Assembly: GCA_034521445.1 (NCBI GenBank)
Contig: JAXHMM010000003.1
Location: 124,001 to 188,000 of the forward strand
Origin: Balneolaceae bacterium
Lineage (GTDB): Bacteria > Bacteroidota > Rhodothermia > Balneolales > Balneolaceae
Direction of reading: 5' to 3'
Length of the DNA: 64,000 bases
The position numbers and the translations under genes are program-made. Below the pieces are notes generated by a model that was not told the DNA's origin, searched no databases, and saw only the letters and a program-made list of their open reading frames with translations. This document shows positions 36,244 through 46,662 of this stretch, piece by piece. Within the stretch, counting starts at the first letter, position 1. The number at the start of each line of letters is the position of its first letter.

Positions 36244-36278
36244 GCGATGGCGTTCAGGATTGGGTTTGGAGTTGATAC

Positions 36279-36791
36279 ATGGGGAAGGTAAAATATTTGA
36301 CGAGGGAATGCGTATTCCTCGTAATATACCGATCTACCCAACAGGCGACCGCCTCCCCCGACGATGAAATCATTGCTTCCCATGCGCATGCCCTGGGGAG
36401 GGGATACCGGGTGGCTATCTACACCTATAATCTCACCCTTTTCGATCCCACCTGGTTCGGACACGAATCTTTCTACATCAAGAACAAGCTCATGCAGCAG
36501 GCGGCCCTGAAAGACGATCCCAAGCTTGGGGAGGCCACCGAGGCCTACGGGGCCTTCCTGGACCGGGGCGGGGAGCTGCGCTACGAGGTGCTGCGCCCCT
36601 GGCTGGTCCGACGTGAGCTTGAGGAGGGCAGGCCGGTGCTGGCCGACCCCCTGCGCGGCAATCCGATGGGAGGGGAACAGATTTACGAGACGGACATCGA
36701 CCGGGTGTTGAATGCCATCCTGCTGGGCATCGTGACCTACGACGCCAACCTTATACTCATAACGCCCCCCGAAGGAGGGACGACGGACTGA
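36279..36791 (+). CDS. Degenerate C39-peptidase-like protein of the amidoligase operon
   Basis: A 170-aa protein matching parts of the C39-like peptidase that usually opens RimK/GCS2 operons: HALGRGYRVAIYTYN, DPTWF, ADPLRGNP, and DIDRVLNAILLGIVTYDANL. From memory of the family, two parts are missing. The N-terminal segment with the catalytic Cys (CGPT-type motif) is replaced by unrelated sequence after the ATG. The central segment with the catalytic His (GHFVV-type) is deleted between PVL and ADP. A GGAG site eight bases upstream supports the start, and an in-frame TGA at 36273 rules out a longer protein. It overlaps the next gene by one base (TGATG). Confidence 0.75.
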   Translation: MGKVKYLTRECVFLVIYRSTQQATASPDDEIIASHAHALGRGYRVAIYTYNLTLFDPTWFGHESFYIKNKLMQQAALKDDPKLGEATEAYGAFLDRGGELRYEVLRPWLVRRELEEGRPVLADPLRGNPMGGEQIYETDIDRVLNAILLGIVTYDANLILITPPEGGTTD

Positions 36792-38278
36792 TGCGAAATA
36801 TCGTGGTGGTGAACCAACCGAAACACTGGCCGCTCGACCTGCCCGGGGTTGAGGTGGTGGCGGTGCGCGCCTACCTGGGCGATCCCGAATGGAGCCGCGT
36901 CCGACGGGTTCGGGTCTTTAACATGTGCCGTTCGTACCGCTACCAGTCGGCCGGCTACTACGTCTCCCTGCTGGCCGAGGCCAGGGGACACAAGCCGCTG
37001 CCGGGGGTGATGACCATTCAGGATCTGAAGTCGCAGACCATGGTGCGTTTCGTCTCCGACGAGCTCATCGAACTCATCCAGAAGAGCCTGCGTCCCATTC
37101 AGGGCGACCGCTTCGTGCTGAGCATCTATTTCGGTCGCAACACCGCCCGCCGCTACGACCGCCTCAGCCGGAAACTCTTCGCGCAGTTTCGCGCCCCGCT
37201 GCTGCGCGCCCACTTCCTGCGCGGGGCGGGAGGATGGGGCCTGCAGTCCATCGGACCCATCCCTGCCGGTGAGGTGCCTGAAAGCCACCGCGACTTCGTG
37301 GGACGCGTGGCCCGGGAGTATTTCGAGGGGAGGCGTTCGGAGTTGGCGCCGGGACGCGAGACCCGTTTTGACCTGGCCATCCTTCGCAACTCTGAAGAGA
37401 AGTTCCCGCCCTCCGACGAGAAGGCCATCCGGGCGTTCGTGAAGGCCGCCGAGCAGCTTGACTTCTACGTCGAGCAGATCGGCCGGGAGGACTACGCGCG
37501 GCTGGCCGAGTTCGATGCGCTTTTTATCCGGGAGACCACCAGCGTAAACCACCACACCTACCGCTTCGCTCGCCGTGCGGCGGCCGAGGGACTGGTGGTG
37601 ATCGACGACCCGGAGTCCATCCTCCGCTGCACCAACAAGGTTTACCTGGCGGAGCTGTTGCAGCGCAACCGCATCCCGGCCCCGAGCACCATTATCCTGG
37701 GCGAGGGACAGGAGGAGCGGCTGGAACGGGAGATCGGATTTCCCTGCATCCTCAAGCAGCCCGACAGCTCATTTTCACAGGGCGTCGTGAAGGTGGACGC
37801 CCGCGAGGACCTGCAGCCTGCCCTGGAGCGGCTCTTTGACAAGTCCGAACTGCTCATTGCCCAGGAGTTTCTGCCCACCGAATACGACTGGCGGGTGGGC
37901 GTGCTCAACCGGCAGCCCTTCTATGCCTGCAGATACTTCATGGCGCGCAAACACTGGCAGATCTACGAGCAGCACGCATCGGGACGCGTGTTTGCCGGCA
38001 GGGCGGAGGCGGTGCCGGTGGAGGAGGCGCCCCCGGAGGTGATCGAAACGGCCCTGGCCGCCGCCAACCTGATCGGGGACGGTTTGTACGGGGTGGACCT
38101 GAAACTCACCGGCGGGAAGGTTTACGTCATCGAGGTGAACGACAATCCCAGCATCGACAGCGGCTGCGAGGACGCCTGTCTGGGTGAGGAGCTCTACCGC
38201 AGGGTCATGGAAGAGATGCTGCGCAGGGTGGAGCAGAAAAAGGAGCGCAGCACACGCTCCAGGAACGGCGCGCCATGA
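36791..38278 (+). CDS. RimK-like ATP-grasp amidoligase with N-terminal RLAN domain
   Basis: A 495-aa ligase. The N-terminal RLAN domain (about 1-165; FNMCRSYRYQSAGYYVSLLA) marks the RimK branch found in GCS2/FGase operons. The ATP-grasp domain (about 255-480) includes the nucleotide-binding LKQPDSSFSQGVVKV and the metal-binding VIEVNDNPSIDSG. It should join an amino acid or peptide to a carboxylate through an acyl-phosphate. The gene overlaps both neighbours (1 base before, 4 bases after), so production is tightly coupled. The substrate is unknown. Confidence 0.9.
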   Translation: MRNIVVVNQPKHWPLDLPGVEVVAVRAYLGDPEWSRVRRVRVFNMCRSYRYQSAGYYVSLLAEARGHKPLPGVMTIQDLKSQTMVRFVSDELIELIQKSLRPIQGDRFVLSIYFGRNTARRYDRLSRKLFAQFRAPLLRAHFLRGAGGWGLQSIGPIPAGEVPESHRDFVGRVAREYFEGRRSELAPGRETRFDLAILRNSEEKFPPSDEKAIRAFVKAAEQLDFYVEQIGREDYARLAEFDALFIRETTSVNHHTYRFARRAAAEGLVVIDDPESILRCTNKVYLAELLQRNRIPAPSTIILGEGQEERLEREIGFPCILKQPDSSFSQGVVKVDAREDLQPALERLFDKSELLIAQEFLPTEYDWRVGVLNRQPFYACRYFMARKHWQIYEQHASGRVFAGRAEAVPVEEAPPEVIETALAAANLIGDGLYGVDLKLTGGKVYVIEVNDNPSIDSGCEDACLGEELYRRVMEEMLRRVEQKKERSTRSRNGAP

Positions 38279-39516
38279 GCACGAACTCCCCCCTTCATCT
38301 TTTCCAGGCCTTCGGCATCGAGCTGGAGTATATGATCGTGGACCGCGACAGCCTCGACGTGCGGCCTGTGACCGACCGCCTGCTGCACAAGCTGGCAGGG
38401 TCGTATATCAATGAGGTGGAGCGCGGCGACCTGGCCTGGTCCAACGAACTGGCCCTGCACGTGCTGGAATTCAAGACCAACGGCCCAGCTGCCGGACTGG
38501 GCGGCCTCCACCGTTCATTCCAGCGGGAGGTGGAGGAGGCCAACCGCCTGCTGGCCGGGGAGGGCGCCTGCCTGATGCCCACGGCCATGCATCCATGGAT
38601 GGACCCCTACCGCGAGCTGAAGCTCTGGCCCCACGAGTACAACCCCATCTACGAGGCCTACAACCGGATCTTTGACTGCAGGGGACACGGGTGGGCCAAC
38701 CTGCAGAGCATGCACCTCAACCTGCCATTTCAGGGCGACGAAGAATTTGGGCGCCTGCACGCGGCCATTCGGGTGGTGCTGCCCCTGCTTCCGGCCCTGG
38801 CTGCCAGCTCTCCGGTGGCGGACGGCGAGCTCAAGTCTTTTGCCGACTACCGGCTGGAGGTCTACCGCGGCAACTCCCATGCCGTACCCTCGGTGCTGGG
38901 CTGGGTGGTGCCGGAGGCCGTTTCCAGCCGGGCGGAGTACCAGCAGAAAATTTTCCAGCCCATGTACCGCGACATTGCTCCGCACGATCCCGAGGGTATA
39001 CTGGCTGACGAATGGCTCAACTCGCGCGGAGCGATTGCCCGTTTCGACCGAGGCAGTATCGAGATACGGCTTGTTGACGTGCAGGAGTGTTCCCTGGCCG
39101 ACCTGGCGCTGGCCCGGATGGTCACCGACACGGTTCGGGCCCTGGCCGACGAGCGATGGGCAGGTCTGGAGGAGCTGAATGCGTGGGACGAGAAGGAGCT
39201 TTTCGGGTTGATGATGGAGGCGGCGCGCGAAGGGGAAGAGGCCCGGATTGACAGCCCCGGCTACCTGGCGCTCTTCGGAATGGAGGGCCGCACCGCGACA
39301 GCCGGAGAGGTCTGGCAACATCTCCACGAACGTATCTACGGGGACCGTCGGGGGAAAGCGGACGAGCAGCTTGCGGCCCTGGCGCGCATCCTGGAGGCGG
39401 GCACCCTCTCCACGCGCATCCGCAGGCGAGTTGGACCGGCCCCGGATCGTCCCCGACTGAAGCAGGTCTACCGGGAGCTTACGGAATGCCTGGGTGAAGG
39501 ACGCCTGTTGGAATAG
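38275..39516 (+). CDS. GCS2-family carboxylate-amine ligase (glutamate-cysteine ligase-like)
   Basis: A 413-aa member of the GCS2 (YbdK-like) family in the glutamine-synthetase-fold ligases. The glutamate/ATP-binding start FGIELEYMIVD and the later SMHLNLPF and SRGAIARFDRGSIEIRLVD are family-typical. It probably makes a gamma-glutamyl or other amide bond, but glutathione synthesis is not implied, since no gshB is present. It sits in the middle of the operon, with a 4-base overlap with the RimK-like gene and three bases before the amidohydrolase. Confidence 0.92.
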   Translation: MSTNSPLHLFQAFGIELEYMIVDRDSLDVRPVTDRLLHKLAGSYINEVERGDLAWSNELALHVLEFKTNGPAAGLGGLHRSFQREVEEANRLLAGEGACLMPTAMHPWMDPYRELKLWPHEYNPIYEAYNRIFDCRGHGWANLQSMHLNLPFQGDEEFGRLHAAIRVVLPLLPALAASSPVADGELKSFADYRLEVYRGNSHAVPSVLGWVVPEAVSSRAEYQQKIFQPMYRDIAPHDPEGILADEWLNSRGAIARFDRGSIEIRLVDVQECSLADLALARMVTDTVRALADERWAGLEELNAWDEKELFGLMMEAAREGEEARIDSPGYLALFGMEGRTATAGEVWQHLHERIYGDRRGKADEQLAALARILEAGTLSTRIRRRVGPAPDRPRLKQVYRELTECLGEGRLLE

Positions 39517-39519
39517 GTC

Positions 39520-40236
39520 ATGGAAGCCCAACTCGTACTGACTTGCGAACACGCCGGCAACAGGGTGCCGGAACGCTACACGGACGTATTCCGGAATGAC
39601 GCCCCGGTGCTGGAGACGCACCGCGGCTACGACATCGGCGCCCTTGAGCTCACGCAGGCCATCGCGGAGGCCTGTGAGGTGGAACCGCACCTGCATACGG
39701 TCACCCGTCTGCTGGTCGACCTGAACCGCTCCCTTCACAACCCCACCGCCTTTTCGGAATATGTGAGGGATTTTGAGCAGGAGGATCGCAGCGAGCTGGT
39801 GCGCCGCTACTACCATCCCCACCGCAACAGGGTGGAGGAGATCATCCGCTCCCTCCTTGCCCGCGGCGAGCAGGTGCTGCATCTCTCCGTTCATACCTTT
39901 ACGCCTGTCATGAGGGGCGAGGAGCGCCAGGCTGACGCAGGTCTGCTTTTCGACCCTTCCCGCGCCCTGGAGAAAGATTTCTGCAGGGCCTGGAAGGCCT
40001 CCATCCTGCGGAAACGTCCGGAGCTGAGGGTCCGCTACAACTACCCGTACAGGGGAACCATGGATGGATTTTCCACCGCCCTCAGGAGGCGCTACGGACC
40101 GGCGGAGTATATGGGCGTGGAGCTGGAGGTCAACCAGAAGTTCCCTCAGCAGGGCGACCCCGCCGGCTGGAAGAAGCTGCGGGAGGACATGGGACAAAGC
40201 CTGAAAGAGGCGCTGCGGAACGAATTGGACTCCTAA
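39520..40236 (+). CDS. N-formylglutamate amidohydrolase family protein
   Basis: A 238-aa FGase-family metal-dependent hydrolase. Visible family motifs are LTCEHAGNRVPERY (metal ligands), RGYDIGALELTQAI, LLVDLNRSLHNP, LSVHTFTP and the C-terminal GVELEVNQKF. Members hydrolyse N-acyl or amide bonds of glutamate derivatives. In the RLAN-RimK operons the enzyme is thought to trim or recycle the ligase product. Here it is the last enzyme gene, three bases behind the GCS2 gene. Confidence 0.9.
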   Translation: MEAQLVLTCEHAGNRVPERYTDVFRNDAPVLETHRGYDIGALELTQAIAEACEVEPHLHTVTRLLVDLNRSLHNPTAFSEYVRDFEQEDRSELVRRYYHPHRNRVEEIIRSLLARGEQVLHLSVHTFTPVMRGEERQADAGLLFDPSRALEKDFCRAWKASILRKRPELRVRYNYPYRGTMDGFSTALRRRYGPAEYMGVELEVNQKFPQQGDPAGWKKLREDMGQSLKEALRNELDS

Positions 40237-40281
40237 GGTTGTCCTTTTTACTTTCCGCTCAACCCAAACGGCTTCGTGTCC

Positions 40282-41058
40282 ATGTCCGACGGCGACCCCC
40301 ACAACAACGGCGTCAGCTACAAGCGCGACGCCCTCTTTCTCACCCTTGCCGGCATCTTCCTTACCGCGCTGGTCCTGGGTAATGTCATCGGCACCACCAA
40401 GTTCGTGGATCTTTTCTCCCTGGAGCTGCCGGGCTGGCTGCTCTCCATTACCCCCGAACTGGTGCGCAACGACCGGATCTACACCATGAGCGTGCCTGTG
40501 GGACTCATCGCCTATCCCTTCACCTTCCTTGCCACCGACCTGATCTCTGAACTTTACGGGAGGAGGAAGGCGCAGCTGCTGGTGTGGGTGGGTTTTTTCA
40601 TGAATGTTTTCATGCTTTTCCTGATGAGCGTGAACCACTGGCTGCCCAACAGTGCGGGGGTGAGCGGGGGACTCAGCCTCTTTGAGCAGGTCTATGAATT
40701 TATGGTGGGCAATACCATCGGAAGCATGATTGCCTACCTTGTCGCACAGACGGTGGACGTGCGCCTCTTCCATTTCTGGAAGCGGCTGACCAAGGGCAAG
40801 CACCTGTGGCTCCGCAACAACGCCTCCACCATGGTGAGTCAACTGGTAGACTCCACCGCCATTCTTTCCATACTTTATATGGCCGGCAACCTGGGTTCGG
40901 ACGTAACCACCATCGGGGCACTGGTCATCCTTATTATAAACTCCTATCTCTTCAAGTTCTTTTTCGCCCTCTTTGACACCCCGCTTTTCTACCTGGGCGT
41001 GCGGCTGTTCAAGCGCTTCGACGAAGACCCGTCCGGCTACGCTCTTCACGATTCCTGA
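40282..41058 (+). CDS. Queuosine precursor transporter (YhhQ/VUT family)
   Basis: A 258-aa inner-membrane protein with about six to seven helices. It has the YhhQ/VUT hallmarks LVLGNVIGTTKFVD, PFTFLATDLISELYGRRKA and RNNASTMVSQLVDSTAILSI. The family imports queuosine precursors. The ATG at 40282 is chosen; a GTG six bases upstream is possible. It follows the amidohydrolase by 45 bases and precedes the rRNA leader. The tgt gene at 48138-49265, which inserts the precursor into tRNA, makes a functional pair, though the two are not co-transcribed. Confidence 0.92.
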   Translation: MSDGDPHNNGVSYKRDALFLTLAGIFLTALVLGNVIGTTKFVDLFSLELPGWLLSITPELVRNDRIYTMSVPVGLIAYPFTFLATDLISELYGRRKAQLLVWVGFFMNVFMLFLMSVNHWLPNSAGVSGGLSLFEQVYEFMVGNTIGSMIAYLVAQTVDVRLFHFWKRLTKGKHLWLRNNASTMVSQLVDSTAILSILYMAGNLGSDVTTIGALVILIINSYLFKFFFALFDTPLFYLGVRLFKRFDEDPSGYALHDS

Positions 41059-41280: not shown

Positions 41281-41364
41281 CTTGTCATCCCGACAATAGT
41301 TGGGAGCGACATAGGAAAACGTTACGGGCTGGGTTCAACACTCTATATTAAGGTGTACTCTTAC

Positions 41365-42903
<1,539 letters not shown>

Positions 42904-42924
42904 GAGGGAGAACCGGCCCGTAGC

Positions 42925-42954
42925 GGCTCGTCGTGTGATCGTCTGTGTATTCCA
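42925..42954 (+). other. 3' arm of the pre-16S processing stalk
   Basis: It begins GGCTCGTCGTGTGATCGTCT and pairs with the leader segment 41251-41280. It lies 22 bases after the 16S end, at the start of the internal transcribed spacer. Confidence 0.85.
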
Positions 42955-43003
42955 GCCAGGCCGGCCTGCCGGCCCCAAACCGGTCGGTTCCCGCCACGCA
43001 TTT

Positions 43004-43078
<75 letters not shown>

Positions 43079-43087
43079 CTTACGGCC

Positions 43088-43120
43088 GGCTCTAGCTCAG
43101 CTGGCCAGAGCGCCTGCTCG
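43088..43120 (+). pseudogene. Truncated tRNA-like fragment (5' half)
   Basis: GGCTCTAGCTCAGCTGGCC and the following AGAGCGCCTGCT look like the acceptor, D arm and first anticodon-stem strand of a tRNA (Ala-like). After this the sequence turns into an unrelated GC-rich stretch with no anticodon loop or 3' half. It lies 18 bases before the full tRNA-Ala, and may be the remains of a duplication or an assembly artefact. Confidence 0.6.
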
Positions 43121-43138
43121 GCCAGCCGGGGCGCCCCT

Positions 43139-43214
43139 GGGGCTATAGCTCAGTTGGCTAGAGCACCTGCTTCTGCAAGCAGGGGGTCGTCGGTTCGAAT
43201 CCGACTGAGCTCCA
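43139..43214 (+). tRNA. tRNA-Ala (TGC), aberrant: two single-base insertions
   Basis: Acceptor GGGGCTA, D arm GCTC/GAGC, anticodon stem CCTGC/GCAGG and T arm GTCGG/CCGAC identify spacer tRNA-Ala. Two oddities are seen. The anticodon loop is TTCTGCAA, eight bases instead of the usual seven (TTTGCAA). The 3' acceptor strand reads TGAGCTCC, with an extra G compared with TAGCTCC. It would fold with a bulge and an enlarged loop. It may be non-functional or a sequencing error. Confidence 0.8.
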
Positions 43215-43332
43215 GCACGGTAGGTCCGCGCCGGAGGGTATGTGTTGGTTGTTGATGTGTTGCCAGGCGCCGACGTTGAGGGCGGGATCTTCCTGGAGAA
43301 GCGTCCCGCGCCGGAAGCATCCGTGCTCCAGG

Positions 43333-43346
43333 TGTTCTTTGACGTA
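43333..43346 (+). promoter_or_regulatory. boxA-like site before 23S
   Basis: TGTTCTTTGACGTA repeats the leader element at 41235-41250 (TTCTTTGACATG) and lies about 115 bases before 23S, the place where a second boxA is found in many rrn operons. Confidence 0.6.
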
Positions 43347-43459
43347 GTGGAATAGCTGATAGGTTATGAAGGTTAAGATCGAAGCAAGTCGATCGAGCAA
43401 GATGACGTCTGACAGACGAACTGCTCAGGCTGCCCGCCGATGGTGGATGGCAAGTCATA

Positions 43460-46396
<2,937 letters not shown>

Positions 46397-46540
46397 TATG
46401 ACTTGCCAGGCCCTCGCCCGGCCGGCGACCGGTCTTAACCGGCAACCCCCTTCAGCTATTCCCCTGGGTCAAAGCACGCCTTGCGCGCGGCCCCGTTCCC
46501 TTCTTTGTACATACATACTGACAGTCCCTCCTTCCAAGGC

Positions 46541-46662
46541 TTTGGAGGAGGCGAGCCAAGCGCGGAGGTTCCACCCGTTCCCATCCCGAACACGGCCGTT
46601 AAGCTCCGCAGCGCCGATGGTACTGCCTCTGGCGGTAGAGTAGGTCCTCGCCTCCTCCAAAG
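46541..46662 (+). rRNA. 5S ribosomal RNA
   Basis: The core CACCCGTTCCCATCCCGAAC and GTTAAGCTCCGCAGCGCCGA are diagnostic. The ends are closed by a perfect stem of about 20 pairs (AAGGCTTTGGAGGAGGCGAG and its complement, 46536-46664), longer than the mature 5S helix I and probably part of the precursor. Confidence 0.95.

What the first reader, a model, noticed from the sequence alone, without database searches (positions are those of the whole stretch)
36279..40236. Amidoligase operon whose peptidase member has lost both catalytic regions
The sequence shows four coupled genes: C39-like protein, RLAN/RimK ATP-grasp, GCS2 ligase and FGase. Operons of this content are known and are predicted to make and trim an unknown amide-linked metabolite or peptide tag. 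Here the C39-like protein is only 170 aa. As I remember the family, it lacks the N-terminal Cys segment and the central His segment (joined between PVL and ADP), yet it keeps a good ribosome-binding site and tight coupling. The C39 partner may have become a non-catalytic subunit, or the gene is decaying.
Basis: partly seen in the sequence, partly recalled or inferred. Interest (0 to 1): 0.7.

Follow-up and report, generated by a model that had tools for sequence, protein, structure and literature searches.

The report
Amidoligase operon with truncated peptidase gene
In one Balneolales-type bacterium a widespread four-gene operon for an unknown amide-linked product keeps both ligases and its hydrolase intact, but its peptidase gene has lost both segments that carried the catalytic cysteine and histidine, most likely a recent loss of function.

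Summary
ORF 36279-36791 (170 aa) is orthologous to a 210-262 aa C39_2-like papain-fold family, but only in two blocks (residues 37-121 and 122-163). The Cys segment (58 aa in the nearest ortholog) is replaced by 36 unrelated residues, and 47 residues holding the His are cut out in frame. All 95 distinct full-length homologues keep both motifs. In a 395-genome phylum sample, 26 other genomes have the gene and all are full length. The genome has no second copy and no displaced piece. RLAN/ATP-grasp, GCS2 and FGase keep 71/72, 56/56 and 31/31 invariant residues. The locus lies in conserved synteny with G011, and no other gene compared there shows an internal deletion of this kind.

The retained part keeps 37/37 near-invariant residues. 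Any unselected period must therefore be very short (under about 0.035 substitutions per site) or selection continues. The 36 N-terminal codons look non-coding (GC3 0.58 against 0.81), and the AlphaFold2 model shows no intact papain core.

Best reading: recent loss of catalytic function in a gene whose frame still overlaps and may couple to RLAN. Less likely: a maintained non-catalytic subunit, or a misassembly or strain variant. No congeners or reads were available, so these cannot be fully separated.

The parts
36279..36791 (+). 170-aa ORF, truncated C39_2-like (papain-fold) protein
36279..36386 (+). 36 N-terminal codons with no homology to the family; GC3 0.58 (genes 0.81); probably former intergenic or rearranged DNA that happens to be open
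36387..36641 (+). retained block A (HALGRGYR...PVL, 85 codons), ungapped against G011
36641..36642 (+). in-frame junction PVL|ADP where 47 residues including GHF (catalytic His) are missing
36642..36767 (+). retained block B (ADP...ITP, 42 codons) with the family-invariant Asp and LLGIVTYDANL
36791..38278 (+). RLAN + RimK-like ATP-grasp ligase, intact; its ATG overlaps the stop of the short ORF (TGATG)
38275..39516 (+). GCS2 (YbdK-like carboxylate-amine ligase), intact
39520..40236 (+). FGase (N-formylglutamate amidohydrolase-like), intact

Best explanation
This is an ordinary C39-like/RLAN-ATP-grasp/GCS2/FGase amidoligase operon whose first gene has recently lost its catalytic function by deletions that removed the Cys helix and the His strands. 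Inferred mechanism: the two ligases build an amide (gamma-glutamyl or isopeptide-like) product, the C39-like enzyme normally cuts or transfers it, and FGase hydrolyses a related N-acyl amide. In this genome the C39 step is lost. What remains is an open frame ending in a TGATG overlap with RLAN, and such in-frame loss may be tolerated because translation still runs into the RLAN start. Shown: the deletions, the absence of any other C39_2 protein in the genome, the intact partners, and the synteny. Inferred: recent loss of function, translational coupling, and the chemistry.
For: Cys and His segments missing, Asp kept. No second PF13529 protein and no displaced piece in the genome. Short form unique: 95/95 distinct homologues have both motifs, and 26/26 other positive genomes in a 395-genome phylum sample are full length. 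The N-terminal extension is not homologous and compositionally unlike coding DNA (GC3 0.58, P=0.0014). AF2: full-length ortholog pLDDT 92.8 against 72.5 here with residues 1-26 below 50; the deleted parts hold helix 18-29 and strands 173-182 and 187-191. The short model has no significant PDB fold match, while the full model matches C39 peptidases, PeiR and Alr0975. Some relatives keep RLAN+GCS2 with no C39 or FGase (L165, L166). Mildly faster evolution: C39 branch 2.0x its sister, against 1.2x for RLAN and 1.5x for GCS2 and FGase.
Against: No decay is visible in the retained part: 37/37 near-invariant residues kept, no stop, no frameshift, codon-position pattern like RLAN. The unselected period must be under about 0.035 substitutions per site. 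Two in-frame events with nothing else damaged is a small coincidence. The SD-like GGAG before ATG 36279 arises in only 7% of shuffles.
Confidence: 0.6

Rival explanations
1. The short protein is a maintained non-catalytic subunit: the C39 fold lost its active site but the family-specific insertion and C-terminal part still bind the ligases or their product.
For: 37/37 near-invariant residues and an ungapped frame retained; neutral drift limited to under about 0.035 substitutions per site; GGAG before the ATG and TGATG overlap with RLAN; partners intact.
Against: Found in one genome only. The N-terminus looks non-coding. AF2 gives no intact papain core, and residues 1-26 and 123-126 fall below pLDDT 50. 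The same data fit a very recent loss.
Confidence: 0.22
2. Misassembly, or a minority strain's deletion allele chosen by the assembler; the population carries a full-length gene.
For: Single genome, no congeners held, reads not available; a 37/37 intact retained part is what an artefactual cut would give.
Against: No other ortholog compared with G011 in this window shows an internal deletion of this kind. The locus lies inside a 656-kb contig with a complete rRNA operon 1.1 kb downstream, suggesting a good assembly. The in-frame junction and the altered N-terminus are not typical collapse products.
Confidence: 0.15
3. A different catalytic residue (C11, H35 or H37) replaces the lost ones and the short protein is an active enzyme.
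For: C11, H35, H37 and D123 exist in the ORF.
Against: C11 lies in the non-homologous, disordered extension (pLDDT about 32-45); no relative supports it; the core strands are gone.
Confidence: 0.02

Closest known systems
C39_2-like protein of the RLAN/GCS2/FGase operon (e.g. G011 C1:1010915-1011625; Balneolales, Bacteroidota, Planctomycetota, deltaproteobacteria)
   Same: same operon position, 66.9% identity over the retained 127 codons, same synteny
   Different: relatives keep CG[PVA]T and GHF; here both segments are missing and the N-terminus is unrelated
Amidoligase operons with RimK-like ATP-grasp, GCS2 and papain-like peptidase (Iyer et al. 2009, doi 10.1039/b917682a, not held here and known to me from memory; cited in PMC4431377 and PMC10318531)
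   Same: gene content and order as I remember them
   Different: peptidase member catalytically broken here
C39 double-glycine peptidase domains (PCAT1, ComA), pseudomurein endoisopeptidase PeiR, phytochelatin synthase Alr0975
   Same: the full-length ortholog's fold matches them
   Different: the short protein no longer has the Cys helix or the His strands and gives no significant match

Membership tests
C39_2-like peptidase of amidoligase operons | sequence homology outside the active site | tested here: met
   two blocks, 66.9% identity, 37/37 near-invariant residues
C39_2-like peptidase of amidoligase operons | catalytic Cys in CG[PVA]T | tested here: not met
   segment absent; 95/95 distinct homologues have it
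C39_2-like peptidase of amidoligase operons | catalytic His in GHF | tested here: not met
   47-residue segment absent
C39_2-like peptidase of amidoligase operons | Asp of ADP motif | tested here: met
   D123, invariant column
C39_2-like peptidase of amidoligase operons | papain-like fold | tested here: not met
   AF2 model partial, no significant PDB match; full-length ortholog matches
RLAN/GCS2/FGase amidoligase operon | intact RLAN-ATP-grasp, GCS2 and FGase in this order | tested here: met
RLAN/GCS2/FGase amidoligase operon | makes an amide-linked product | not testable with these tools
   no biochemistry available

The most novel reading that the evidence does not exclude
A papain-fold peptidase stripped of both catalytic segments has been kept as a small non-catalytic partner of two amidoligases, showing that the family-specific insertion plus C-terminal part has a function of its own (binding the ligases or the product).
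Probability: 0.2. Interest if true: 0.5.

Novelty: new variant of a known kind. Interest (0 to 1): 0.3.

Why it matters
The operon type is widespread (Balneolales, Bacteroidota, Planctomycetota, deltaproteobacteria) and I found no paper here stating its product. A natural strain that keeps both ligases and FGase but lacks the C39 step is a ready-made knock-out: comparing its metabolites with a relative holding the full operon could reveal the uncut intermediate. As a gene-level finding it is probably a recent pseudogene-like truncation and of modest interest.

Tried and rejected
Frame-shifted or relocated Cys segment: a PSSM scan of 36244-36387 gave no significant hit (69/300 shuffles as good; only PDDE in frame), and full-length and PF13529 searches of the genome found no other piece. 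Upstream DNA imported from elsewhere: no match in the genome or relatives beyond chance. Promoter scan: nothing above chance. Long direct repeats at the deletion edges: none found in the present sequence. General assembly erosion: other orthologs compared in the window do not show it. Selenocysteine reading of the TGA at the Cys codon in G044: no SelB above cut-off. A first codon-position count for C39 was misaligned by a join error and was redone. Searches for the primary literature: Iyer 2009 is not held; other searches found only citations.

Full report
Observation. The window holds a + strand operon at 36279-40236: a 170-aa ORF, RLAN/ATP-grasp (495 aa), GCS2 (413 aa) and FGase (238 aa). 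The window lies in contig 3 (656 kb) of a 3.2-Mb, 97.8% complete genome; its nearest named relatives in the searches are Balneolales. The stop of the short ORF overlaps the RLAN start (TGATG).

Homology. The short ORF alone reaches no Pfam, NCBIfam or PHROG family, but it pulls in C39-like proteins at the same operon position from Balneolales, Bacteroidota, Planctomycetota, deltaproteobacteria and others. The G011 ortholog hits Peptidase_C39_2 (1.8e-11). Its AlphaFold2 model (pLDDT 92.8) matches PeiR endoisopeptidase, PCAT1/ComA C39 domains and phytochelatin synthase Alr0975. The family is therefore a papain-fold peptidase or transferase.

What is missing. Against G011 the match is two ungapped blocks of 85 and 42 codons, 66.9% identical; between them 47 residues including GHF are missing, and the 58-aa Cys-bearing N-terminus is replaced by 36 unrelated residues. 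C18, G19, T21, G173, H174 and F175 are invariant across 45 relatives and absent here; D192 is kept as D123. All 95 distinct homologues scored have both motifs and are 210-262 aa; one further locus, L094, has a TGA in place of the Cys codon. In 395 genomes of the phylum, 26 others have the gene, all full length. The genus holds only this genome. No other C39_2 protein or displaced fragment exists in the genome.

Context. G011 shares the gene order on both sides, and the C39 gene is the only one compared there with an internal deletion of this kind. In G011 a DUF4174 gene and a 5' leader lie between the GhrA-like gene and the C39 gene; here only 35 bases separate the GhrA start from ATG 36279. 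The first 36 codons have GC3 0.58 against 0.81 in the retained part and 0.84 in RLAN (P=0.0014), and a profile scan finds no significant trace of the family there. The likely history is that former intergenic or rearranged DNA was joined to the remainder of the gene (inference).

Is it decaying or kept? The other three genes keep 71/72, 56/56 and 31/31 invariant residues. The retained C39 part keeps 37/37 near-invariant residues and has a codon-position pattern (0.31/0.18/0.62) like RLAN (0.28/0.20/0.68). Simulation shows that 0.04 unselected substitutions per site would leave all 37 untouched in only 3.5% of cases. So either the loss is very recent or the remnant is selected. The branch to this gene is 2.0 times its sister's, against 1.2 (RLAN) and 1.5 (GCS2, FGase), a mild acceleration. 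The AF2 model of the short protein has pLDDT 72.5, a disordered first 26 residues and no significant PDB match; the deleted parts contain the Cys helix and two or three strands of the papain sheet. Two relatives in the same family keep RLAN+GCS2 with neither C39 nor FGase (L165, L166), and another lineage has a GNAT-RLAN fusion without C39 (L164), so the ligases can exist without it.

Mechanism. From family knowledge and the fold match (inference): ATP-grasp and GCS2 form amide bonds, the C39-like enzyme cleaves or transfers at a gamma-glutamyl or isopeptide-like bond, and FGase hydrolyses an N-acyl amide. In this strain the C39 step is most likely absent. The in-frame remnant may persist because an open frame running into the RLAN start preserves coupled translation, or simply because the loss is young.

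Verdict. Observation confirmed; interpretation partly supported. Most likely recent loss of catalytic function (0.6); maintained non-catalytic subunit 0.22; assembly or strain artefact 0.15. Reads or congeners would settle it and were not available.

Noticed in passing
L094 reverse complement 1381 (G044:C73, same order): A full-length relative has an in-frame TGA exactly at the catalytic Cys codon (QPDDYT*GPTCLHAIY). No SelB above cut-off in that genome, so a nonsense mutation or assembly error is more likely than selenocysteine; RLAN and GCS2 follow it.
   Followed up: partly
L165 and L166 (G086, G105): RLAN-ATP-grasp + GCS2 pair without C39 and FGase in the same family as the window genome.
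   Followed up: partly
L164:3600-5564 (G075) and other genomes of genus g4: GNAT-RLAN-ATP-grasp fusion protein without C39, GCS2 or FGase next to it.
   Followed up: partly
window 41363-46656: Complete rRNA operon (16S, two tRNAs, 23S, 5S) about 1.1 kb downstream of the FGase gene, inside a 656-kb contig.
   Followed up: no
window 40276-41058: Vut_1 (putative vitamin uptake transporter) directly downstream, 82% identical to G011 and syntenic.
   Followed up: no
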